Assembly: GCF_900218015.1 (NCBI RefSeq)
Contig: NZ_UFQQ01000008.1
Coordinates: forward strand, 124,001-188,000
DNA from: Rhodopseudomonas pentothenatexigens
GTDB lineage: Bacteria > Pseudomonadota > Alphaproteobacteria > Rhizobiales > Xanthobacteraceae
Reading direction: 5' to 3'
DNA: 64,000 nt
This document shows positions 4,679-24,502 of this stretch, piece after piece; the stretch's first letter is position 1, and each line of letters opens with the position of its first letter. The notes beneath the pieces were generated by a model. The model saw nothing but the letters and a program-made list of their open reading frames with translations. It did no database searches and was not told the DNA's origin. The position numbers and the translations under genes are program-made.

Positions 4679-4753
<75 letters not shown>

Positions 4754-6477: not shown

Positions 6478-7617
6478 ATGGCGCAACCAACCCCCTACGA
6501 CCGGCAGACGAGCTTCGCGCAGTTCAGCGCGCAGTTTCCGAACAAGCAGCAGAACGGCGGCAGCCTCGACGCCGAGTTCGTCGCGATCAAGGTCTCGCTC
6601 GACGAGACTCAGGCCAACCTGAAGCGTATTCAGGCCGACGACGGCTCGCTGGCGAGGAACAGCGTCGGCCGCGCGCAGCTCGATTCCAGCCTCACGGTCG
6701 GGTTCAAGAGCCCGACGACGTGGCAGCCATCCACCGTCTACACGGCCAACTACGACACCGTGTTCAACGGCGGCAAGTTCTACGTCGCGCTGGTCGATCA
6801 CACGTCCGGCGCGTCTTTCGACGCGACCAAATGGGACATGATCGCGGATCTGAGCGTCGCGGCCGCGCTCGACGACGGCAGCGTGACCGATGCAAAGCTG
6901 GCCGATTCCGCCGTTCTCACGCAGAAAATCGCCGATCTCGCCATCACCACGCCGAAGCTCGCCACCGGCGCGGTCACGAACAACAAGGTCGCGACCGGGA
7001 CGCTGACGGCTGACCGCGCTACAGGTACCGCGTGGCGCGATCTAGTCATCCCGGCCGGCACCGTCTTCTCGTTCACCGGCTCCGCCGCGAATGTCCCCGC
7101 CGGTTTCGTTTTGGCCGGCGGCACGTATCTGCGCGCCGATTATCCGGCGCTGTGGGCGCTGGCGGCGGCGGAGATCGCCGCCGGCGGCAACAGCTGGTAC
7201 GGCGTCGGTGATGGCTCGACCACGTTCACCATCGCCAACCCGGCCGGGCAGGCGCTGGTCGGTGTTGACGTCGGCGGTTCGGTCATTCCCGGCGGCGTCA
7301 GCCTCGGCGCGGCGGCCGGATCCGCGACCAAAACGCTGATCACAGACAACCTGCCGCCGTACACGCCGAGTGGTTCGGTGGCGTCGTCGTTCTCGGGCTC
7401 CGTCAGCTACTCCCGATATACGACGCAAACTCAAATTGGCGCGGACTTCCGTTCTTTCACGCCGAGCCCCGGCGACACCTCGCTTGGCACGGGTGGGTGG
7501 ACTGTTTCAGGCACCGTTACGTCGACATTCACCGGATCTCCGCAAGGCGGCACCAGTACCCCGCTCAACGTCGTTCCGCCGGTCCGCGGTGTCAACTTCA
7601 TCGTGAAGGCTCACTGA
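6478..7617 (+). CDS. Phage tail fibre protein with collar-type domain
   Basis: A 379-aa virion protein. The N-terminal 60 residues (TSFAQFSAQFPNKQQNGGSL) resemble tail-fibre attachment segments. Residues 125-185 hold short fibre-like repeats (VTDAKLADSAVLTQKIADLA, ITTPKLATGAVTNNKVATG) expected of a trimeric beta-helical shaft. Residues 190-270 match the phage tail collar domain (VPAGFVLAGGTYLRADYPAL, GDGSTTFTIANPAGQ). The C terminus (VVPPVRGVNFIVKAH) is the conserved collar tail end. It would contact the receptor at the tail tip. No clear Shine-Dalgarno precedes the ATG. It heads a three-gene plus-strand block. Confidence 0.85.
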   Translation: MAQPTPYDRQTSFAQFSAQFPNKQQNGGSLDAEFVAIKVSLDETQANLKRIQADDGSLARNSVGRAQLDSSLTVGFKSPTTWQPSTVYTANYDTVFNGGKFYVALVDHTSGASFDATKWDMIADLSVAAALDDGSVTDAKLADSAVLTQKIADLAITTPKLATGAVTNNKVATGTLTADRATGTAWRDLVIPAGTVFSFTGSAANVPAGFVLAGGTYLRADYPALWALAAAEIAAGGNSWYGVGDGSTTFTIANPAGQALVGVDVGGSVIPGGVSLGAAAGSATKTLITDNLPPYTPSGSVASSFSGSVSYSRYTTQTQIGADFRSFTPSPGDTSLGTGGWTVSGTVTSTFTGSPQGGTSTPLNVVPPVRGVNFIVKAH

Positions 7618-7619
7618 TC

Positions 7620-7850
7620 ATGAAACCACTGTGGCACTATCTGCCAGACGTAACGACGGACCTGACGGCGGGGAAGCTTCACCGGCTCGATGACGGCTCG
7701 GTCGTCGCGTACTTCCCCAAGAAGTGGGAGAAGCTGGCCGACGCGTCGAAGCTTAAGGCGCTGTTGCCCGACGGCAGCGTCGTCGAGCACTTCCGGTACC
7801 GTGTGACCGAGTGGGACGTAGTCGAGATCAAGTCGGCGGAGGCGGTCTGA
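7620..7850 (+). CDS. Small tail-associated hypothetical protein
   Basis: A 76-aa soluble protein immediately after the tail-fibre stop, almost certainly co-translated with it. It reads MKPLWHYLPDVTTDLTAGKL and later ALLPDGSVVEHFRYRVTEWD, suggesting a small beta-rich domain; no cysteines and no signal peptide. Position between fibre and large phage-like protein suggests a fibre accessory or assembly role, by context only. Confidence 0.65.
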   Translation: MKPLWHYLPDVTTDLTAGKLHRLDDGSVVAYFPKKWEKLADASKLKALLPDGSVVEHFRYRVTEWDVVEIKSAEAV

Positions 7851-7864
7851 TCACAGGAGGCTAC

Positions 7865-10800
7865 ATGTCGAGTTACAATGCGCAGCCCATTCCCGCCCGT
7901 GTGGCCTTCGACCCTCGCAGTCTGGAAACTCTGCCACTCGATCCGTGGGACCGATTCCGAGACGCGCCGCCGCTTCAACTGGCTGAAGCCGAGCGGCCGG
8001 CGCGGCTCGATATGATTCAGATGCCGGGCGCCTCGGTGGCGATGCCGCAGGTTATCCCGCCGCTGCCTCCCGGGTACACGCTCGATCCGCCGCCGCAGCA
8101 AGTAATCCCGCCGCTGCCGCCGGGCTACACGCTCGATCCGTTGCCGCCGGGCTACAACATGGCTCCGCTGCAGAATCATCCGGAGGATGCGCCGGTGGCC
8201 AATGGCGCGCGGCCCGGCATGTTCGATGACCTGATTCCGCAGCCGCAGCAGGCGGCCCCCACCGGCGGCCGCCCTGGCATGTTCGACGACCTCATCCCGG
8301 CCAACAATCGCGGTCCGAAGCTGATCCCGGTGGATCACGACCCGTTCGCGCAGCCGCAGCCGGATAATCGAACCACGCTGCAGAAAGTGCGCGAGGCGAT
8401 CGACCCGGTGGCGCTTGCGTCCTCCGCCATCTCGTCGCTCTGGAACAACCGCCACGCGATCGCCGTCGGCGCGCAGGGCGTCGGCGCCGGTGTGCGAGAC
8501 CTGGCGCTGATGCCATTCGACCTTGCGGCGGGTGCGCAGAATGGCGTGACGGCTCTGACGAACAAGGCGTTCGGCACCGACATCCCCTACGCGGTCCCGG
8601 CGTCGAGAATGGCCGAGAAGGTGCTGGCTCCGTACTCGATACCGGAGAGCGAGATGTCGCCGGGGGAGAAGCTCGGCTACAACATCAACCGTTTCGGCAC
8701 GCAGGGCGTTGGCGGCGGCACCGCGCTGGCCATGCGGGCTCCGACGGTTGCGGCCGCGGTGATGCCGTCGGAGACGGCCGGCGCACGCATCCTCGACCGG
8801 CTGTCGCGGCCCTATATGGCTGCGCCTGCGCGCACGGTCGGCGGCGACGCGGTCGGTGGCGCCGGTGCGGGCGTCGGCGTGACCGCGGCCGAGGAGTATC
8901 TACCGAAGGAGCCGGCGACCACCACTGGCCAAATCGCCAATACGGTCGCCACGCTCGCCGCTCCGCTCATCGGCGGTGTCGGCGCGACCGCTGCACTCAG
9001 CAGCGCCGAAGGCTTGGGCGGCATGTTCCGAAATATCGCCGCTCGTTCGTTCGGCTCGACGCCGGAAATCCCGCTCAACCCCATCGCGAAGACACCTTAC
9101 AAGGAGCCGGAGATCGATCGCGCCGCAGCCACGCTGCAGAACCAGACCACCGGCGCGCCGCGCGCCGTGGCGCAGGACATCCGCGAGAACGCCGCCGAGT
9201 TCACGAATCCGCAGCGCCCCGGCGAAGCGGCGTTGCTGCCGTCGCAGATTCCGACAGCCGGGTTGCTGTCGCGCGACCCTGGCTTGATTTCGCAGGAGGG
9301 TGCGGCCCGCTCGAAGAACGCCCCGGACTTCATCGAGCGCGACCAGCGAGTGAAGGAAACCGCCGCCGGGCGCGTCAACAGCCTGCGCGATCCCGAGGCC
9401 GATCTCGGCAGCGTCTTCCGGCGCGCAGCGGAAGCGCGTGACGAGCGGCTGCAGGGCGCCAACGCCGCGGTCGACGAACGGGCAAGTGCGCTCAGCGCCT
9501 TGGATCAGGCGCGCCAGCACCAGGGGGCCGAGTTCGGCGTCGTGGCCAACGCAGGAGCGCGGGCCGGCGCCAGCCAACGGCTGGACCGCGCGGTTGTCGA
9601 CGAAGGCTACGTGCCGGCGCGTGCCGAGAAGAACCGGCAGTTCGAAACGTCGCCCGGCCGCGCGGAGCAATTGCCCGCGGACGAGGTGTTCACCGCAATC
9701 GATCGTGTGCGCGCGCAGAACAACATGCTGCGGCCCGACAATCAGGTCCCGGAGGATCTGATGCAGCGCCTCGAAGCGCTGCGGCCTCGCATCGAGATGC
9801 GCGACACTAACATTCTCGGCGCCGATGGCCGCCCGGTTCGTCAGGAGGTCAACGTCGGTGGCGCCGGTACTGCCACGGGTGCCGATCTGGCGGACCTGCG
9901 CAAATACATCGGCGCGGCGCAGCAGCGCGCGCAGGTGACGGGCAATTTCGATTTGGCCGACAGCCTGCGGAACCTTGGCGGCGCGGTGAATCGCGCCATC
10001 GAAGTGGCGCCGGGCTACGCCGAGGCCAACGCCAACTACCGCCAGTTCGCCGACCGGTGGCGGCCGAACCAAGCCGACGAGATGGCGAGGTTCACGCAAG
10101 AGCTCGACCGCAGCGGCAACACCGACGGTATGCCGAACCGCGGCAGCACGCCGCCGAGCGAGACCGCTGGCCGCTTCCTGTCGTCTCCGGAGAAGGCGCA
10201 GACGCTTCAGCGCGTACTGGCCGGCGCACCGAACGCGCAAGCTGGGCAATCGGCGGTTCGCGACTACATGCGCTCGGATTTCGCCATGTCGGCGATGAAC
10301 CCGGACGGCACCCTGCACCCGGCACGCGCCGCGGCATGGGAGCGCAATAACGCCGACGTGCTGCATCAATTCCCGGCGCTGCGCACCGAGTTTGACGGAT
10401 ACGTGCAGACTGCGCGCCGCGGCCAGGCGCTCAGCATCGAGGCGCGCAATGCACTCGACGAGGCCCGCGCCGCGCGCCGTGCAACGGAATTGGAGGTCGA
10501 TCGCTCGGCCATCGGCACGCTTCTGCGGGAAGATCCGCGCGACGTGGCCAAGTCCCTGCTCGGCGGCCGCTACGGGTCCGAGAAGCGGCTCGACGAGATC
10601 AGTGCGCTCGTGAAGAACGACGCGCAGGCAAAGCGTGGTTGGAAGGCCGCCGTTGCTGAGGTGCTGACCGACAAGGTCCGCGGTTCGAAGATGGTCGGCG
10701 AGACCCCCGAGGTGCAGTTCGCGCGGCTGGCGCGGGAGTTCCAGGACAACGAGGCGCTGCTGGCTAAGACGTTCACGCCCGAGGAAATGAATACGCTGCG

Positions 10801-11149
10801 GCAAGGCCACAAGCTGCTGGAGTATTTCAAGGAGGCGGAGAAGCGCGCCACAGTCGGGTCGGACACCGCCGACAAATGGAACGTGTCGCAGTGGGTTCAG
10901 CTTGCCATCCGCCACGTGAAAGGCGATCTCGCCGGAGGTGGCTTGGTGAAGCGTTTCAAGCTGTTCCTTGAGCTGCTGCCGACCAACAAGCAGGGCGCCG
11001 ACGAGATCGTGCGCCTAGCGTGGTTCAATCCTGATGTGGCGGCTTACTTGCTGGAGCGCCCGATCAAGAACCCGAACGTGCCGGAGTACAACATCGACCT
11101 GCGGCGGCTCGAAGCCGCGGCTCAGGGCGCTCGGGAGAGCGGCGACTAA
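7865..11149 (+). CDS. Very large phage-like protein (internal virion/tail candidate)
   Basis: A 1094-aa protein with start fixed by CAGGAGG before the ATG. Residues 60-150 are Pro-rich with two PPLPPGYTLDP copies and two RPGMFDDLIP motifs, linear elements I associate with large internal or ejected virion proteins of podoviruses. A Gly/Ala-rich stretch with several hydrophobic segments follows (about 200-420; VGGAGAGVGVTAAEEY, TVATLAAPLIGGVGATAAL). The remainder is a long charged helical region. No lysozyme or transglycosylase catalytic motif was recognised. Its size, tail-fibre linkage and helical build suggest an ejection or tape-measure-like protein; the exact role is inference. Confidence 0.75.
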   Translation: MSSYNAQPIPARVAFDPRSLETLPLDPWDRFRDAPPLQLAEAERPARLDMIQMPGASVAMPQVIPPLPPGYTLDPPPQQVIPPLPPGYTLDPLPPGYNMAPLQNHPEDAPVANGARPGMFDDLIPQPQQAAPTGGRPGMFDDLIPANNRGPKLIPVDHDPFAQPQPDNRTTLQKVREAIDPVALASSAISSLWNNRHAIAVGAQGVGAGVRDLALMPFDLAAGAQNGVTALTNKAFGTDIPYAVPASRMAEKVLAPYSIPESEMSPGEKLGYNINRFGTQGVGGGTALAMRAPTVAAAVMPSETAGARILDRLSRPYMAAPARTVGGDAVGGAGAGVGVTAAEEYLPKEPATTTGQIANTVATLAAPLIGGVGATAALSSAEGLGGMFRNIAARSFGSTPEIPLNPIAKTPYKEPEIDRAAATLQNQTTGAPRAVAQDIRENAAEFTNPQRPGEAALLPSQIPTAGLLSRDPGLISQEGAARSKNAPDFIERDQRVKETAAGRVNSLRDPEADLGSVFRRAAEARDERLQGANAAVDERASALSALDQARQHQGAEFGVVANAGARAGASQRLDRAVVDEGYVPARAEKNRQFETSPGRAEQLPADEVFTAIDRVRAQNNMLRPDNQVPEDLMQRLEALRPRIEMRDTNILGADGRPVRQEVNVGGAGTATGADLADLRKYIGAAQQRAQVTGNFDLADSLRNLGGAVNRAIEVAPGYAEANANYRQFADRWRPNQADEMARFTQELDRSGNTDGMPNRGSTPPSETAGRFLSSPEKAQTLQRVLAGAPNAQAGQSAVRDYMRSDFAMSAMNPDGTLHPARAAAWERNNADVLHQFPALRTEFDGYVQTARRGQALSIEARNALDEARAARRATELEVDRSAIGTLLREDPRDVAKSLLGGRYGSEKRLDEISALVKNDAQAKRGWKAAVAEVLTDKVRGSKMVGETPEVQFARLAREFQDNEALLAKTFTPEEMNTLRQGHKLLEYFKEAEKRATVGSDTADKWNVSQWVQLAIRHVKGDLAGGGLVKRFKLFLELLPTNKQGADEIVRLAWFNPDVAAYLLERPIKNPNVPEYNIDLRRLEAAAQGARESGD

Positions 11150-17070: not shown

Positions 17071-17652
17071 TTAGGGACAATGCCGGGATGACTTCCAGCC
17101 GCCCGCCGAGTTCGCCGCGACGGCAACGCCGCAATCACGACAGACCGCCAGTAGAGTCGCAGTGGTCAGCGGCGTGCGCGCTGCGACCGCTTCCGCTCCG
17201 CTCAGCTGGATTTCCTCGGCCAGCTCTTGGCGCGACCGGCCGGTGAGGTGCCGCACTGCGGCTTCCCTGACATTCGCCACGTCATTAGCGGTCGCTTCGT
17301 CCAGCGCTCGGTGAGCCTTCGCATCGCGGTAGCGGTGGTCTTGGTCGTATCGCTTGTTCGTCGGCGGCGTGAACGCTTGGCTGCCGTGCTCGATCTGGAT
17401 CCGGGCAAGGAAGGCGGCGATCCGCTGCTCGACCGTTTCGCGCCGGCGGGGTCGGTCGGGCAGTTGACCGAGATGGCGCGCGACATTTGCGAGCTTGAAC
17501 CGATCGACATCGGCTCGCGAGAACCGCGCATGGCCGCCAAGCGTGAGGAATGCGGCCCGCAGCCCCTTCGACCGCATCCAACGGCGGACAGTGTTCCCGT
17601 CGACACCGAACTCCTCGGCCAAATCGCTCACTTTCAACCACTCGTCAGTCAT
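17071..17652 (-). CDS. MerR/excisionase-type HTH DNA-binding protein
   Basis: A 193-aa protein. Residues 1-50 are a winged-helix DNA-binding domain (WLKVSDLAEEFGVDGNTVRR, WMRSKGLRAAFLTLGGHARF). The middle and C-terminal part is helical (HRALDEATANDVANVREAAV) and contains VCRDCG, possibly half of a metal site. A GAGGGCC ribosome site precedes the ATG. It may control the lipoprotein-SNase genes downstream or act in excision. A 19-bp motif about 140 bp upstream is shared with the AlpA-like gene promoter. Confidence 0.75.
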   Translation of the reverse strand: MTDEWLKVSDLAEEFGVDGNTVRRWMRSKGLRAAFLTLGGHARFSRADVDRFKLANVARHLGQLPDRPRRRETVEQRIAAFLARIQIEHGSQAFTPPTNKRYDQDHRYRDAKAHRALDEATANDVANVREAAVRHLTGRSRQELAEEIQLSGAEAVAARTPLTTATLLAVCRDCGVAVAANSAGGWKSSRHCP

Positions 17653-18209: not shown

Positions 18210-19223
18210 TTAGTCGAGGTACGAAGGTGTGGCTGCTTCGCACACCCGCCGGTGAGAGCCCGACCCAATAGGAGGCCCGTGGAGGAGTTTTTCGGGGGTG
18301 GGACGTCCACGTGCCGCGGCAGGGGGTCGAAAAACGAACCCAGCGGTCCGGCTGCCGGCCTGGCGGGGCTGCCCAACCTTGCCGGTTCGGGCCAGAATGG
18401 GGGCGGAGCTCGATCGCCGGTCTTTGGCCATGGCGTCGAGCAATGCCGGCACATCCTCAAGCCGTGCTGCTGCCAGCTGCCGCGACTGCTCGGGTGTCAG
18501 GTCTCGAAACTCAGGCCGGAACGCCTTGTCCCGCGGTGACAGGACCTCAGGCTCCCGCTTCTGCGATCGCCTCGCCTTGCGGGCCTCAGCGGCGGCAGCC
18601 AGCGCGGCGGCCTTTTCCGCCCTCGCGGCCGCCCGCGCCGCGCGGCGCTCCCCCGCGGCCTTCGCGTTCGCTGCTGCTTTGGCCTCCCGCTCTGCTCTGG
18701 CTTTCGCCCTGCGCTCCGCCTGGACCCGCGCGGCACGCTCGGCCGCTGCCTTGGCCTCGCGCCGCTCCCGCAACGCGCGCGGCCGGCTGGCCGGCTTCAG
18801 CACCTCCCGGCTGCGCTTCGCGGTGGCGCGCTTCTCGGCCCTTGCGCCCTTCGCCTCGGCGGCTGCGCGCTCCCGCTCCTTGGCCTTGGCGCGGCGCTTA
18901 GCCTCCGCCTTCGCGGCCTTCGCCCGCCACCGCTTGGCCGCAGGCGACTTGTCAGTCGGCGCAAACCATGTGGCCGGGGCTCCGGGGCGGCGGTGCTGCT
19001 CACACCGGCGAGTAATCCCTTGGCGCGAGTGGATCCGCCAGCGGGAGGCGACGGTTTCGAACCGCGCGCCGCAGTCCGCGCAGTACGACGTGCAGCCGAG
19101 CAGCGGATTGTCCGAGTCGTTGCGCTCGGTGAACACCCGACGGGTGACGGTGTAGGTCTGCTGGCCGATCCGGAAGCGATGGCCAATGTCGTAGCTCCAT
19201 GCGGGATGCTTTCGGTTGCTCAC
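18210..19223 (-). CDS. Zn-finger-like N terminus with long Ala/Arg/Lys coiled coil
   Basis: A 337-aa protein starting at GTG (GGGGGTGC upstream). Residues 10-80 contain YTVTRRVFTERNDSDNPLLG then CTSYCADCGARFETV and a further Cys, a likely zinc-binding domain. Residues 95-230 are an extreme Ala/Arg/Lys/Glu-rich heptad-like region (AEAKRRAKAKERERAAAEAK), predicted long coiled coil. The C terminus is disordered and basic. It lies directly beside the iteron cluster and downstream of the replication gene, so a DNA-binding or replication role is possible but unproven. Confidence 0.65.
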   Translation of the reverse strand: MSNRKHPAWSYDIGHRFRIGQQTYTVTRRVFTERNDSDNPLLGCTSYCADCGARFETVASRWRIHSRQGITRRCEQHRRPGAPATWFAPTDKSPAAKRWRAKAAKAEAKRRAKAKERERAAAEAKGARAEKRATAKRSREVLKPASRPRALRERREAKAAAERAARVQAERRAKARAEREAKAAANAKAAGERRAARAAARAEKAAALAAAAEARKARRSQKREPEVLSPRDKAFRPEFRDLTPEQSRQLAAARLEDVPALLDAMAKDRRSSSAPILARTGKVGQPRQAGSRTAGFVFRPPAAARGRPTPEKLLHGPPIGSGSHRRVCEAATPSYLD

Positions 19224-19372
19224 AGCGCACCCCCGGGTCGCGAGCCCGCGGGGCGCTGGCCTGCCGCGGTCCAGGCAGCGGTGGCGAAACCGCCAGCTGT
19301 GGATCGCCCACGGTGGGGATGTCGGTTTTGATCTTGAGTGCGGTTTCCCCGAAACACCTCAAGTCGCCGGCT

Positions 19373-19471
19373 GGTCCGGTGGTCCGCATGTATAGTCATG
19401 CGGACCAACCGGACCAAACACAGCCCTGGAGCACCGGACCGGACCGGACCAACACCGGACCAAAGCGGACC
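19373..19471. repeat. Iteron-like CGGACC cluster with inverted repeat (candidate replication origin)
   Basis: Directly after the Prim-pol/helicase stop there are seven CGGACC units at 19401, 19410, 19435, 19440, 19445, 19456 and 19466, and two inverted GGTCCG units at 19373 and 19381. They include a perfect 10-bp inverted repeat GGTCCGCATG/CATGCGGACC (19381-19390, 19397-19406) around AT-rich TATAGT. P4-type primases bind comparable iterons beside their own gene. Origin activity is inference. Confidence 0.6.
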
Positions 19472-19476
19472 TGCCC

Positions 19477-21894
19477 TCATGGTGATAACCTAACGTATTG
19501 GCCGTTCGCGGTTTTTGTGACCACGCCGCTGTCGATCAATGGCTGCAACGAGCGGTCCAGAGCCTGTTTCGCGCCGCTTACGCTGCCACGGGCGGATCGG
19601 ATGGCCTGGAGCTGGCCCGCCCACTCGCCGAATGTCGCTATTGTCGCTTTTACATTCGGGTCGGCCGTGCTCTTTCCAGCGAGGACCGCGTCCAACGCCG
19701 CCAGCGCTTCTTCCTGTGCGGGGGTGAGCTCGACCTTGAACTCCGCCTCCGCGCGGTCGACCCAATCGACCACGACCGAGGTGATCGCATCGCCCTCAGC
19801 GTCCTTTCCGAGCTCGACGACCTTGATACGGAATGCCAGCCGCTCGATCTCCGCATACTCCTTGACGCGCGGCGTGGTGACGGTGCGCAGCTTCGTCTTC
19901 TGGTCGATGTCGACTTTGATGAGAAGGTCGATGTCATTGAGCATGATCGACGAGCCGCGATAGTCGGATGACGCGTCCTTGGTCGGATGGTGCAACAGCA
20001 GGACCGTTGCGCCGGTCTTCCGCGTGATCATGGCGCAATTCTTCAGCACAGCGCGGACGTGTTCCGGGTTCGATTCGTCACCGCCGCCGAGCGCGTGCGA
20101 AAGCGTGTCGATGACGACCAGCCCGGCCGGCACTCCGAACCGTTCCGCACCGGCTATTACCGCCTCGACGATCGCGTTTGCGTCTCTGGCGGATGTTCGG
20201 AGGTCAAGGCTTCCCGCGACGAACTCGAACGGCACGCCCTCCGCGGCGCCGGAGAAGTGTTCTCGGCGCAGCGCCTCCATTCGGTTCGACAACCCGGTGA
20301 AACCCTCCGTCGAGCAGTGCAGCACGTAGGACCGCTTGACCTTTCGGCCTTGCCATTCCTTGCCAACCGCGACGTGGGCCGCAAGATCCAACGCCAGCGG
20401 GGATTTGCCGGCGTTCGATGGGCCGCTCATCATGGCCGTCATCCCGTAGTTCAGCAGGCCCCGCACCATGTAGTTTTGGCGGGTTGTCCAGCCGGGAGAG
20501 GTGATGTTGCGCACGTGGAAGCGTTGCGCGGCGGCGCCTCCGTTGGAGCCTTCCGGGTCGGCTTTGCGGCGCTCCGGAGGTGGTCGATCGACGATATGAG
20601 CGGTCTGATCGTCGAACTCGACGCCCGCTAGCTGTGTCGAGCGGGTGCCGAGCGGGTTCTGCGCGTAGGTGTAGGCGTGCTCGACCTTTTCCTCCAGCTC
20701 CTCGGCGGATTTCGTCGCGGCGTGCGGCCAATGCGCAGCCATCAGCTCGACGCACTTCTCCTGCGAGATGCCGAAGTCGTGGATTGCAGTGGCGACGACG
20801 TAGCTCCCGGTCTGAGGCGCCTCGGTCGTCAGGTACTGAATTGCGCGGGCGGTGTCGTCCGGATGGTCAAGCTCTGTCAGCAGACATCCGAACTTGCCGT
20901 CAGCCGCGGCGCGAGCCCTGTTGCGCCGCCGATGCGATCCAGTCCCGGCCCCCGTGTGGTCGACGACCCACGTCGGCAGATCCGCGATTGGCGCATCGTT
21001 CAACACGGTGTAGGCAGCGCCGTCGATCGTCGAGCCTGGCGCCACGACGTAGCCGCCCAGGCCTTTCAGGTCGATGTCCGTGCCGAGTACCTTCGGAAAG
21101 TCGTCGCTGATCCCGTCCACGCGGTAGTAGCGGTGTTCGCCACCACTGGCCGACCGGACGGTGTATGTTGGCGGGAGCTCGTCATACAGCGCTTCGAGCA
21201 GCCGTAGCGTCTCGAAACCCTGCTTCCCCTGCCTGCAGTCGATGTCCACGACGAGCAGATCGGCTCGTGGTGCAATCCCAATGTTGTAGTCGATCTCGGA
21301 ATCGAACGCCGGGTCGGTCCACATCTCGGCGACGCGCTGCGGGTCGGACGACGCAAGCTTACGCCAGTTCGCGCCTCGGATAGCAGGCTCTTTGCCATTC
21401 ATGGCGGCCGGGAAGACGTCGAAGCCCTTTGCCGCCAGCGCGACGGCTTGATCCCGCTTGCTTGCGGCGGGCGAAATTCCGAGGAGCGCAGCACCGGCTA
21501 CAGCCGGCGACACAACCCCCTTGGCGCTATCGTACAGCACCCGGTCGACCTGCCACTGGCGGGCGGCGGTATATCCGGCGAGATCGGTCACATCGGCGAT
21601 GTCGTCCTTGATGACGGCCAGCCGCTGCACCTCGCGCTTGATTGCCTCGGTGGCGGCTTTCGCTTCGGCCGGAGAACACCAGGGAAGATGCCACCTGACT
21701 AAAGTTGCAAAACCGCACTGTTCGATGAAGTCAGGCCGGGCAATGCCGCCCGGCCTGCCGAGCAAATGGCGCGCGGTGGCCTCGTGTGAGCTGTCGCCGT
21801 CGGCTCGAAACGCCGCGTTGAGCCAAACTGCGCCGTCGGCCGCTTGCAGCGCGACGAGGCCGTCGGCCGCTGTGATCAGTTGAGCCTCGCTCAT
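19477..21894 (-). CDS. Prim-pol/helicase replication protein
   Basis: An 805-aa protein that could prime and unwind DNA for the element. Residues about 145-315 are a bifunctional DNA primase/polymerase domain. They include the metal pair DID (D217, D219 in VVDIDCRQGKQG), H254 in SASGGEHRYY, and the third acidic region near D275 (GTDIDLKG). Residues from about 470 form a RecA/RepA-type ATPase with Walker A SGPSNAGKSPLALD, Walker B GLVVIDTLSHAL, and LLLHHPTKDASSDYRGSS. The N-terminal 140 residues are of unknown fold. It is translationally coupled (ATGA) to the 189-aa gene and followed by iteron-like repeats, as in satellite or plasmid replication modules. Confidence 0.88.
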   Translation of the reverse strand: MSEAQLITAADGLVALQAADGAVWLNAAFRADGDSSHEATARHLLGRPGGIARPDFIEQCGFATLVRWHLPWCSPAEAKAATEAIKREVQRLAVIKDDIADVTDLAGYTAARQWQVDRVLYDSAKGVVSPAVAGAALLGISPAASKRDQAVALAAKGFDVFPAAMNGKEPAIRGANWRKLASSDPQRVAEMWTDPAFDSEIDYNIGIAPRADLLVVDIDCRQGKQGFETLRLLEALYDELPPTYTVRSASGGEHRYYRVDGISDDFPKVLGTDIDLKGLGGYVVAPGSTIDGAAYTVLNDAPIADLPTWVVDHTGAGTGSHRRRNRARAAADGKFGCLLTELDHPDDTARAIQYLTTEAPQTGSYVVATAIHDFGISQEKCVELMAAHWPHAATKSAEELEEKVEHAYTYAQNPLGTRSTQLAGVEFDDQTAHIVDRPPPERRKADPEGSNGGAAAQRFHVRNITSPGWTTRQNYMVRGLLNYGMTAMMSGPSNAGKSPLALDLAAHVAVGKEWQGRKVKRSYVLHCSTEGFTGLSNRMEALRREHFSGAAEGVPFEFVAGSLDLRTSARDANAIVEAVIAGAERFGVPAGLVVIDTLSHALGGGDESNPEHVRAVLKNCAMITRKTGATVLLLHHPTKDASSDYRGSSIMLNDIDLLIKVDIDQKTKLRTVTTPRVKEYAEIERLAFRIKVVELGKDAEGDAITSVVVDWVDRAEAEFKVELTPAQEEALAALDAVLAGKSTADPNVKATIATFGEWAGQLQAIRSARGSVSGAKQALDRSLQPLIDSGVVTKTANGQYVRLSP

Positions 21895-22460
21895 CCCGCG
21901 GCCCCCTCCTTCGGAGCGCGGATCACAGCGACTGGCTGGTTAGCTCGCCGGCGGCGGTTGACGTAGTCGAGCCAGGCCGCGACTTGATCCTCCCGGCAAC
22001 GAATCGTCAGTTGCACCGGCAGGATTGGAAGCCGCGGTTCGACGCCGTCTTCACCGGTGACGGCGATCACGACGCTGTGTGACATGCACAGCAGCTTTTG
22101 CAGTGTGGCGGCGTGGTAGTCCTCGGGAAGTCCTTCGGCCGCCGCGTAACAGCCGGTGGGTAAGGTGCTGATCTCCACATCGACCAGATGGAAGGCGCAG
22201 CGCGGATCGCCGATGCAGCGCGCGTGGAGGTCGACCCACAATAGTTGATCGCTGGATAGTTGAAGCCCCGGGGAGACGAACAGCGAAAGGGTGTGAATCG
22301 CAGGGTTGATGTGGGAGTGCAGGGCGACAGGCTCTTTGGCGCGTGCCGCATCCCGTGACGCCGCTGCGGCTCTGTTGGTGAAAAGGCTTTCGAATTGAAG
22401 GGTTTCGTTCGGCTCCGACGATTGATCTGTGCCGCTCGGCGTGGTATCGTTCTCGTGCAT
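21891..22460 (-). CDS. Unknown protein coupled to the replication gene
   Basis: A 189-aa soluble protein. Its stop overlaps the Prim-pol start (ATGA at 21891-21894), so the two are translationally coupled. It contains a disordered acidic N terminus (SSEPNETLQFES) and a mixed alpha/beta region (LLWVDLHARCIGDPRCAFHL, VVIAVTGEDGVEPRLP), ending in a basic tail (YVNRRRRANQPVAVIR). No known family recognised. Position points to a replication accessory or copy-control role (inference). Confidence 0.65.
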   Translation of the reverse strand: MHENDTTPSGTDQSSEPNETLQFESLFTNRAAAASRDAARAKEPVALHSHINPAIHTLSLFVSPGLQLSSDQLLWVDLHARCIGDPRCAFHLVDVEISTLPTGCYAAAEGLPEDYHAATLQKLLCMSHSVVIAVTGEDGVEPRLPILPVQLTIRCREDQVAAWLDYVNRRRRANQPVAVIRAPKEGAAG

Positions 22461-22628: not shown

Positions 22629-22901
22629 TTAGGCGGCAGCGGCGGGCTGGGACACGCCCGCGTAGGCGAGCACAGCCGCAGCCGTGTACGAGATGCGGCG
22701 AGGCCCGATCTTGCTGACGCGCGGCCCCTCACCAGTGGATCTCCAGCGCTGCAAAGTCCGCACGCTGACGCGCAAGACCTCGGCAACCTCGGCTTCTACC
22801 AGGAGGGTTTCCGGATCGAGACGCGCCACTTTTCCAAGCGTGAAGCGATCTGAGAGCGAGGCTTCAGACCGGGCCTCTGGATTTGAAGACGTCGTGTCCA
22901 C
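22629..22901 (-). CDS. AlpA-like HTH protein (excisionase/regulator)
   Basis: A 90-aa DNA-binding protein with a short disordered start, then DPETLLVEAEVAEVLRVSVR TLQRWRSTGEGPRVSKIG as the helix-turn-helix and wing, and a short tail. AlpA-like proteins of satellite phages activate the integrase or replication operon and may serve as the directionality factor. It sits next to the integrase and just upstream of the 189-aa/replication genes on the same strand, the usual satellite-phage arrangement. Confidence 0.82.
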   Translation of the reverse strand: MDTTSSNPEARSEASLSDRFTLGKVARLDPETLLVEAEVAEVLRVSVRTLQRWRSTGEGPRVSKIGPRRISYTAAAVLAYAGVSQPAAAA

Positions 22902-23079: not shown

Positions 23080-24303
23080 TTACATCGCCTTTGCCGTTAA
23101 TTCTCGCACGGCTCCGCCTTCAGCTATTACCGTCTCAACATACGTTTCCCACAACGCCGCGGCTTGCAGCCGCTCCCGCCATCGCGGTTCACGGTCGTAG
23201 GTTTCGATCAGTTCCTCGCCTACGTGGTTGATCATCAGTTCGGCCAAGTCACGGTCAACGTGCAGCGCGGTCAGTCCCGACCGAAACGTGCGCCGGCAAT
23301 CGTGGAGCGTGAACGCAACGCCGCAGGCTTCCACCAACTTCGGGTGGCGCTTCGACCATCCCGTCATGGCAGCACCGCCAGCGCCTGCGAACACATAGGG
23401 GCTGCCAGCGAATTTCGGCTGCCTTTTGATGATGGCCAGAGCGAGCGGCGGCAGCGGCACGCGATGCACCCGGCCGTTCTTTGTGCTCGTTTCCGGGATG
23501 GTCCAGACGCCAGCCCCGAGGTCCACGTCGGCGCGCCGCATGAATGCGGTTTCCTTCCTTCGCTGGCCAAGCAGCAGGAGCACGCGAACATAGTCGCCGT
23601 ACGGCGCTGCCACGTTGCTGCAGCCGCGCCAGATAGCCTTGATCTCATCAGGCTCAAGCCGCCGGCCGGTTTGGGCGGTGCGTTGTGCCCGTGTCCGCCG
23701 ATCTCGACGCCAGCCGGCGAGCGGGTTAGAGCTCAGCAGCCCAGCGTTGACCATCCAGTTGAGAAACGTGGTTGCCTTGGCGCGCAGATCCTGGGCGGCG
23801 CCGGGCTTCTTCTGAGTCTCAAGCTTCGCGACGCGGTCAACGATGGTTTGACGGGTGATGGTTTGCGCGTCGACCTTGCCGAGTGGCTTCAGCAGTTCGC
23901 GCCGCAGCGTGGCAACGATCGTTTTCGCGTTCACCACGCCGCGCCCGGTCAGGTGCTTCTCGTAGGCGTCAATTGCCACGTCGAGCCGCGCCGCCTCCCG
24001 TTGGCGAATCTCTTTGCGCTCTGCCTGCGGATCACCGCCGGCCGCGATTTGGCCAAGGTAGCGCCGCGCCGCGGTGCGCGCGTCAGCCAGGCGGAGTGAA
24101 CCACACTCGCCAAGGTACAGGCGGCGTTGCGGCGCCTCCCGGCCGCTGCCGGCTCGGTAGAACAGGAAGTAATTCTTCTTGCCGGACGGCCAGCATCGAA
24201 CGCCAAAGCCGCCAACGTCCGCGTCCCAAAGCACCACCTCGCCCTTGGCCGGCGGCTGCAGCGTCCGAATCCGTTCTTCGGTCAAGTTCACTCGGTTGGC
24301 CAT
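23080..24303 (-). CDS. int: Tyrosine site-specific recombinase (integrase)
   Basis: A 407-aa phage-type integrase. An N-terminal arm-binding-like domain (VNLTEERIRTLQPPA, DADVGGFGVRCWPSG) resembles DUF4102 proteins. A central core-binding region follows, then the catalytic domain with R248 (GQRRKE), K275 (TSTKNGRVH), H334 and R337 (HDCR), H360 (INH) and nucleophile Y369 (IETYDRE). All five catalytic positions are present. The ATG at 24303 is chosen over 24339, whose extra residues would be encoded by the end repeat. It lies next to the right attachment site and ends the replication-side gene run. Confidence 0.95.
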   Translation of the reverse strand: MANRVNLTEERIRTLQPPAKGEVVLWDADVGGFGVRCWPSGKKNYFLFYRAGSGREAPQRRLYLGECGSLRLADARTAARRYLGQIAAGGDPQAERKEIRQREAARLDVAIDAYEKHLTGRGVVNAKTIVATLRRELLKPLGKVDAQTITRQTIVDRVAKLETQKKPGAAQDLRAKATTFLNWMVNAGLLSSNPLAGWRRDRRTRAQRTAQTGRRLEPDEIKAIWRGCSNVAAPYGDYVRVLLLLGQRRKETAFMRRADVDLGAGVWTIPETSTKNGRVHRVPLPPLALAIIKRQPKFAGSPYVFAGAGGAAMTGWSKRHPKLVEACGVAFTLHDCRRTFRSGLTALHVDRDLAELMINHVGEELIETYDREPRWRERLQAAALWETYVETVIAEGGAVRELTAKAM

Positions 24304-24318
24304 GGCCGCCGCTCCAGT

Positions 24319-24340
24319 CCGGAAGCACCGCGGAAGCACG
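24319..24340 (+). repeat. 22-bp end repeat, right copy (possible integrase arm site)
   Basis: Identical to 4802-4823 in the same orientation, 117 bp inside the right attachment site and just upstream of the integrase start, so it could also mediate integrase autoregulation. Confidence 0.6.
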
Positions 24341-24457: not shown

Positions 24458-24502
24458 TTGGTAAGGGAGAGGTCGACAGTTCAATCCTGTCCGGCAGCAC
24501 CA
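24458..24502 (+). repeat. Right attachment site (45-bp tRNA-Thr 3' duplicate)
   Basis: Exact copy of 4709-4753 lacking the 5' half of a tRNA, so it is an integration scar and not a functional tRNA. It closes the element; the next host gene ends at 24612. Confidence 0.93.

What the first reader, a model, noticed from the sequence alone, without database searches (positions are those of the whole stretch)
19373..21894. Prim-pol/helicase gene followed by a CGGACC iteron cluster: candidate replication origin
Seven CGGACC units plus a perfect inverted repeat lie within 100 bp of the replication gene's stop, with an AT-rich centre. Iterons beside the primase gene are how P4-type alpha proteins recognise their origins, but the repeat sequence here appears unlike P4's. 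This could be an undescribed self-replicating satellite origin.
Basis: partly seen in the sequence, partly recalled or inferred. Interest (0 to 1): 0.75.

Follow-up and report, generated by a model that had tools for sequence, protein, structure and literature searches.

The report
Island origin read by its helicase
A mobile DNA island in a bacterium carries a replication protein followed directly by a cluster of short DNA repeats that the same protein most likely recognises to start copying the island, a layout found in the same place, with matching protein and DNA changes, in many phages and phage satellites.

Summary
The cluster is real: nine CGGACC copies (not seven) in 99 bp directly 3' of a Prim-Pol/AAA_25 (RepA-type) helicase gene, ending in an 11-bp perfect inverted repeat. 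No other hexamer cluster in the 64 kb is as dense. The gene sits in a 19.8-kb island in tRNA-Thr, with a 45-bp direct repeat at its ends and an empty site in one relative.
The repeat sequence is not conserved, but its place is. Of 186 distinct helicase C-termini, 137 have a 3' array that no shuffle matched. In the closest relative (61% identical helicase) every copy changed from GTCCG to CTCCG, with a similar layout.
Across 76 non-redundant relatives (the window's protein is outside this set), repeat bases track two neighbouring C-terminal residues best of 334 columns.
Best reading: a one-protein replicon, with primase, RepA-type helicase and iteron reader in one polypeptide and its origin immediately 3'. 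That plan is known for PICI/SaPI, SCCmec and pRN1 with other helicase types; no paper listed by my searches described it for RepA-type helicases. Replication was not shown, and structure prediction never ran.

The parts
4679..4753 (+). tRNA-Thr (GGT), integration target; its last 45 bp (4709-4753) are the left end repeat
   Evidence: ARAGORN; Rfam; repeat extent
24458..24502 (+). right end repeat, 45 bp identical to the 3' part of tRNA-Thr
   Evidence: empty site in relative G108 (L292)
23080..24339 (-). tyrosine integrase
   Evidence: Pfam Arm-DNA-bind_3, Phage_int_M, Phage_integrase; phrog_1
22629..22901 (-). AlpA-like/excisionase-type HTH protein
   Evidence: HTH_17, phrog_66
21891..22460 (-). 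189-aa protein overlapping the start of the replicase gene, no family
19477..21894 (-). 805-aa replicase: Prim-Pol (aa 150-309), AAA_25/RepA-type helicase (aa 470-641), C-terminal domain
19537..19578 (-). aa 773-786, SGAKQALDRSLQPL: stretch aligned with the presumed DNA-recognition helix of relatives
   Evidence: alignment A1; covariation in relatives
19373..19471 (.). iteron array: nine CGGACC units (two on -, seven on +)
19380..19407 (.). perfect inverted repeat, 11-bp arms, loop TATAGT; outer TGGTCCGG (19372-19379) / CCGGACCA (19409-19416)
18210..19223 (-). 337-aa protein just beyond the array; a homologue follows the array in the closest relative (aa 19-83, 37%, E 1.4e-4)

Best explanation
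The array is the replication origin of the island and the binding site of the protein encoded beside it. Shown here: the array; its fixed place directly 3' of RepA-type (AAA_25) helicase genes in many elements; and, in relatives, the tight match between repeat bases and a short stretch of the helicase's C-terminal domain. Inferred: after excision by the integrase, the C-terminal domain binds the iterons; the helicase assembles as a ring on its own origin and opens the DNA, perhaps at the AT loop of the inverted repeat; the Prim-Pol domain lays primers; and the host polymerase extends them. What RSF1010 does with three proteins (RepC at oriV, RepA helicase, RepB' primase; the RepB' part recalled) would be done by one polypeptide. 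Because all copies in an array change together with the protein, each element would replicate only from its own origin.
For: Position: of 186 distinct C-termini (from 290 loci fetched by replicase similarity, not by repeats), 137 have a 3' array that none of 200 shuffles reached, 148 at <=2/200. In the first 80 viral loci, 59 of the 77 with >=300 nt downstream (53 of 66 distinct C-termini) have their densest repeat window, ties counted, at the helicase 3' end; windows with >=7 copies are 235 of 547 at the stop and 50 of 23,281 more than 400 nt away. Closest relative L002 (61% helicase identity): 9+2 CTCCG against 7+2 GTCCG here, no mixed copies, similar spacing, inverted pair last. Covariation: of 334 columns one residue is first for repeat bases -1 and -2 and its neighbour first for base -3. 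K/R at the first residue: 36 of 43 proteins with G at -2 against 4 of 33 with other bases; Q: 7 of 26 with A/T, 0 of 50 with G/C. Nearest-neighbour prediction of the motif: 12 helix columns 0.64 (n 66), whole helicase 0.23, best of 52 other 12-column blocks 0.33, best of 60 random 12-column sets 0.39; with neighbours <45% identical (n 58) 0.53, 0.09, 0.30, 0.32; chance 0.12. Named elements: Rhizobium phages 16-3 and RHph_X2_25, Roseobacter phage CRP-811, E. coli and Klebsiella satellite-like elements. The primase module varies (of 41 array-bearing members, Prim-Pol hits in 24, Toprim_2 in 4, AAA_25 in 41), so the array goes with the helicase. Precedents: PICI (PMC6092414), SaPI/SCCmec (PMC7581432), pRN1 (PMC4234260), all seen as passages.
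Against: No replication, binding or read-depth data. The window's own motif (CGGACC) is not of the NNNACA type, so its protein is outside the covariation set; for it there is only the two-way comparison with L002, whose array partly overlaps the coding end. By the test used, 38 of 186 distinct C-termini have no array, among them one conserved phage clade (L095, L106, L108, L109, L115, L117, L119, L120, L122). The residue-base rule has exceptions (7 of 43 and 4 of 33). For base -2 the second-best column (z 7.8, against 8.4) lies in the same stretch, but for base -1 a helicase column comes second (z 7.1 against 11.7), so shared descent adds to the signal. The C-terminal domain matches no Pfam family and no solved structure by sequence, and structure prediction was busy at every try, so 'winged helix' is a guess from the sequence pattern. 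GC skew shows no turn.
Confidence: 0.78

Rival explanations
1. The array is an operator: the replicase binds it to regulate itself or the next gene, and replication starts elsewhere.
For: It would also give repeat-protein covariation; the array lies between two genes.
Against: It is 3' of the replicase, not at its promoter; the following gene differs between the named elements looked at; in PICI elements the same place is a tested origin and in SCCmec a binding-tested one (passages).
Confidence: 0.12
2. The inverted repeats are a transcription terminator of the replicase gene and the direct repeats are by-products.
For: Hairpins are common: median best arm 9 bp in 137 arrays against 7 in 38 loci without; arms longer than in 20 shuffles in 87 of 137 against 8 of 38; CCC(T/A)GGG-type core in 47 of 137 against 6 of 38. 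In phage 16-3 the last hairpin is followed by TTTT.
Against: Many copies are direct repeats outside the hairpin, and a terminator does not explain covariation with a protein residue. A hairpin may be a terminator in addition.
Confidence: 0.05
3. The repeats are bound by another protein (host or repressor), and the match to the helicase is shared ancestry only.
For: Related sequences share both protein and repeats.
Against: At 65-75% helicase identity, same-motif pairs (n 45) share 60% of the helix against 35% for different-motif pairs (n 128), while the rest of the domain differs less (43% against 34%); whole-helicase similarity predicts the motif poorly.
Confidence: 0.04
4. Chance low-complexity or simple tandem repeat.
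For: Three units are 5-bp tandem (19435-19450).
Against: 0 of 300 shuffles; both orientations; similar layout in the relative with a concerted base change; arrays at the same place in 137 of 186 C-termini.
Confidence: 0.01

Closest known systems
PICI / SaPI replicon (pri-rep-ori)
   Same: Integrated island; [quoted passage not shown] ori deletion tested for EcCICFT073 (PMC6092414, passages). SaPI Rep reads its iterons with the C-terminal domain (PMC7581432, passages).
   Different: SaPI5 Rep is the closest homologue of Cch2, which that paper places with the D5-type helicases (AAA+ is recalled); here the motor is a RepA-type AAA_25 domain. No packaging or interference gene was recognised in the ORFs scanned. 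[quoted passage not shown] the arrays reported here in phages suggest otherwise.
SCCmec cch2 replicon
   Same: Cch2 binds and unwinds repeats immediately downstream of its own gene; its C-terminal domain was tested on them (PMC7581432, passages).
   Different: Separate primase-polymerase (CCPol-MP), other helicase family, three iterons.
pRN1 (ORF904)
   Same: Prim-Pol plus helicase plus winged-helix DNA-binding domain in one protein; origin within 166 bp 3' of the gene; a stem-loop is required (PMC4234260, passages).
   Different: SF3 helicase; its authors found no iterons.
RSF1010/IncQ RepA-RepB-RepC
   Same: Same helicase family: RepA of RSF1010 is the only solved relative by sequence (E 1.8e-4).
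   Different: There the helicase is separate and is loaded at an oriV melted by RepC (PMC8965321, passage); here iteron reading appears to be built into the helicase.
P4 alpha / crr
   Same: Primase, helicase and iteron binding in one protein (recalled).
   Different: Alpha has an SF3 helicase (recalled); the window protein gave only Prim-Pol and AAA_25 in Pfam.

Membership tests
Replicon with self-reading initiator and 3' iteron origin (SaPI/PICI/Cch2 type) | repeated short sites immediately 3' of the initiator gene | tested here: met
[quoted passage not shown]
   Two sets are present with a 25-bp step between them, and a 6-base AT loop inside the inverted repeat, but no long AT-rich stretch
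Replicon with self-reading initiator and 3' iteron origin (SaPI/PICI/Cch2 type) | initiator reads the iterons with its C-terminal domain | tested here: inconclusive
   Strong covariation in relatives; the window protein itself only by the L001/L002 comparison; no binding assay
Replicon with self-reading initiator and 3' iteron origin (SaPI/PICI/Cch2 type) | gene plus array maintains a plasmid | not testable with these tools
   needs a cloning experiment
PICI / cf-PICI | integrase, AlpA-type regulator, replication module, specific att site | tested here: met
PICI / cf-PICI | packaging, capsid or phage-interference genes; helper-phage induction | tested here: inconclusive
   None recognised in the ORFs scanned; a 1112-aa ORF has no family; helper induction not testable
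P4-type satellite | alpha-type replicase with SF3 helicase | tested here: not met
   helicase is AAA_25, RepA-like
RSF1010-type RepA helicase family | RepA-like helicase domain | tested here: met
   AAA_25; 1g8y/1nlf/1olo by sequence
RSF1010-type replicon | separate iteron-binding protein RepC | tested here: inconclusive
   No RepC-type hit among the nine ORFs scanned; absence not searched further

The most novel reading that the evidence does not exclude
RepA-type (AAA_25) replicases of phages, phage satellites and islands form a broad class of one-protein replicons. Each ends in an undescribed DNA-reading domain that recognises an origin placed directly 3' of its own gene, with a residue-to-base code that can be read from sequence. 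The origin, and the elements it would be incompatible with, could then be predicted for many unannotated elements.
Probability: 0.65. Interest if true: 0.75.

Novelty: new variant of a known kind. Interest (0 to 1): 0.62.

Why it matters
If this is right, the origin of a phage or satellite of this kind can be located from the replicase gene alone, in elements as different as Rhizobium phage 16-3, a Roseobacter phage from seawater and E. coli satellite-like elements. The matched change of protein residues and repeat bases gives a natural recognition code for a domain that has no Pfam family, and a simple hypothesis for why related elements can coexist: each reads only its own repeats. It would also suggest (inference) that the 'origin directly behind a self-reading helicase' plan arose with at least two different helicase folds.

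Tried and rejected
P4-alpha membership was rejected because the helicase family differs. GC skew showed no turn at the array. A search for the same DNA repeat in 276 family genomes gave only one unrelated place besides the own one. Scans with the window protein alone in genome contigs and viral contigs found no relative, so alignments were used instead. The C-terminal domain gave nothing convincing in PDB sequences or Pfam. Examples of the 38 C-termini without an array by the test: L006, L014, L017-L019, L021, L032, Microcystis phage Mae-JY30 (L038) and the clade L095/L106/L108/L109/L115/L117/L119/L120/L122. By eye some are short frames or have the next gene abutting, and some (L023, L031) show a few repeats that miss the threshold. 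L041 (pSM30-2) matched only in Prim-Pol and shows no array.

Rows dropped before counting: 5 of 290 loci without a scored ORF (L042, a duplicate record, was left out on purpose) and 3 without a stop or 150 nt downstream; then identical C-terminal 130 aa were collapsed (282 to 186). For covariation, 40 of 148 arrays without an NNNACA motif, the window's among them, were left out, then an 80% identity filter was applied (108 to 76). For one search the 11 loci with 1-2 of 200 shuffles were left out. Later E. coli loci (L307-L311) were looked at by eye only and are in none of these counts. The covariation rows are related by descent and not independent; the control used is that all other columns share that descent. 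The 'shuffles' are Markov resamplings that keep dinucleotide frequencies on average.

Literature: ten searches returned results, several with capped lists (for example 20 of 3,554, 10 of 168, 25 of 300). No listed title or abstract start described a 3' iteron array for AAA_25/RepA-type phage or satellite replicases. Subscription journals are mostly not held and preprints of bioRxiv not at all. Six papers were opened, each as passages only.

Full report
What is there. The replicase gene (19477-21894, minus strand, 805 aa) encodes a Prim-Pol domain and an AAA_25 helicase domain. The only relative among solved structures found by sequence is RepA of plasmid RSF1010. Five bases beyond the stop codon begins an array of nine CGGACC units in 99 bp. 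It is the densest hexamer cluster in the window, and none of 300 shuffles of the region reached nine. The far end of the array is a perfect 11-bp inverted repeat with loop TATAGT, extended by a second inverted pair of units. As single-stranded DNA the region folds far better than 200 shuffles (z -4.9).

Where it is. The gene lies in an island. An intact tRNA-Thr (4679-4753) and a 45-bp copy of its 3' part (24458-24502) bound 19.8 kb with an integrase and an AlpA-like gene at one end. In the related genome G108 the same tRNA is followed, about 160 bp on, by the gene that flanks the island on the right (left flank with tRNA 77.5% over 913 bp, right flank 94.8% over 1391 bp), with no island between. 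This is 1 of the 11 relative loci inspected (15 relatives matched, loci were taken for 11); in the other 10 the tRNA core was not found near that gene. The island also carries a tail-fibre-like ORF, an outer-membrane-barrel ORF and a SRAP ORF, but no capsid or terminase gene was recognised in the ORFs scanned.

Are the repeats conserved? The exact tandem sequence is not: it occurs in 2 of 276 family genomes, the own one and a place without this gene. The position is. Relatives of the replicase were found in 19 of 296 family genomes (own included, E <= 1e-30), 16 of 397 of the order (own included) and 11 of 385 of the class (own included, profile search, E <= 1e-20), and in viral contigs through three alignment scans that kept the best 80 loci each. 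From 290 loci, 282 had the stop and enough downstream DNA, giving 186 distinct C-termini; 137 of these have a 3' array that none of 200 shuffles reached, and 148 at <=2 of 200. The repeat differs: CGGGACA, CCGGACA, CGTGACA, CGTAACA, GTACCA, AATCGTA, CTACAAA and more. As an unbiased check on the first 80 viral loci, in 59 of the 77 with enough downstream DNA the densest repeat window of the whole locus (ties counted) lies at the helicase 3' end; windows with seven or more copies are 235 of 547 there and 50 of 23,281 more than 400 nt away.

The closest relative (L002, 61% identity over the helicase) is telling. Its array has nine CTCCG and two inverted CGGAG, where the window has seven GTCCG and two inverted CGGAC, with no mixed copies. 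The layout is similar: single units about 10 bp apart, a 5-bp tandem run, a step of 23-25 bp, further direct units, then 18-19 bp to an inverted pair 8 bp apart. All copies have changed together by one base. The protein stretch aligned with the presumed recognition helix differs too (AKQALDRSL against EDQALHRSL). In L002 part of the array lies inside the coding end.

Who reads the repeats? For 76 non-redundant proteins with an NNNACA-type array (the window's protein is not among them), mutual information between each of 334 protein columns and each variable repeat base was compared with shuffles. One column, in a short basic stretch of the C-terminal domain, ranks first for bases -1 and -2 (z 11.7 and 8.4), and the column next to it first for base -3 (z 9.2). 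Runners-up are a helicase column for -1 (7.1), another column of the same stretch for -2 (7.8) and a column elsewhere in the protein for -3 (6.1), so descent contributes. At the first column K/R goes with G at base -2 (36 of 43, against 4 of 33 for other bases), and Q is seen only with A or T there (7 of 26 against 0 of 50). Twelve columns around it predict the exact motif of a protein from its nearest neighbour in 0.64 of 66 cases; the whole helicase gives 0.23, the rest of the C-terminal domain 0.29, the best of 52 other 12-column blocks 0.33, the best of 60 random 12-column sets 0.39, chance 0.12. With neighbours under 45% identical in the helicase (58 cases) the values are 0.53, 0.09, 0.24, 0.30 and 0.32. 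A small within-species example: of six E. coli satellite-type alleles looked at, five have AAGTGGG arrays; the sixth, L310, has AAGTGAG copies and carries N where the other five have H in the helix (by eye).

Which elements use it. Arrays in the same place follow the RepA-type replicase of Rhizobium phages 16-3 and RHph_X2_25, Roseobacter phage CRP-811, a satellite-like element on an E. coli plasmid and a 17-kb circular Klebsiella record with integrase, capsid and terminase genes. Microcystis phage Mae-JY30 has none. The N-terminal primase module varies among 41 array-bearing members (Prim-Pol hits in 24, Toprim_2 in 4) while AAA_25 is in all 41, so the array belongs to the helicase with its C-terminal domain.

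Mechanism and precedent. [quoted passage not shown] SaPI Rep and SCCmec Cch2 read repeats directly downstream of their genes with the C-terminal domain (PMC7581432, passages). pRN1's Prim-Pol/SF3 replicase has its origin in a stem-loop within 166 bp 3' of its gene (PMC4234260, passages). RSF1010 RepA, by contrast, is loaded at an origin melted by a separate protein, RepC (PMC8965321, passage). The window's system therefore looks like the PICI plan built on the RSF1010-type motor. Binding by the C-terminal domain is strongly inferred for the family and less directly for this member; origin function is inferred from precedent; replication and packaging of this island are untested.

Limits. No structure could be predicted because the service was busy at every try; the C-terminal domain has no Pfam or PDB sequence match, so calling it a winged helix is a guess. 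The window's motif is outside the NNNACA class used for statistics. Thirty-eight of 186 distinct C-termini have no array by the test used.

Noticed in passing
L039, hits H51-H64 (E. coli): Parts of the first ~390 bases of the E. coli RepA-type replicase gene match genes annotated as P4-family or other primases (DUF927, DUF5906) at 70-88% identity, which suggests exchange of N-terminal modules between replicases with different helicases.
   Followed up: no
L042 (CP018459): A 17-kb circular Klebsiella record filed as a plasmid (typed non-mobilizable) carries integrase, DNA-binding protein, capsid, terminase and tape-measure genes; it looks like an excised capsid-forming satellite.
   Followed up: partly
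3' arrays of relatives, e.g. L011, L035, L185: A palindromic core of the type CCC(TTTA/TAAA/TTAA)GGG recurs in 47 of 137 arrays and 6 of 38 loci without array, against about 1% in shuffles; its role is unknown.
   Followed up: partly
L095, L106, L108, L109, L115, L117, L119, L120, L122: A phage clade with the same replicase family and a closely conserved C-terminus has no 3' array by the test used; its origin must lie elsewhere or be of another kind.
   Followed up: no
window 7811-11149 (+): A 1112-aa ORF in the island without any Pfam or PHROG match, next to a tail-fibre-like ORF (6478-7617).
   Followed up: no
window 17071-17652 (-): HTH_17/MerR-type protein of the island, possible regulator.
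   Followed up: no
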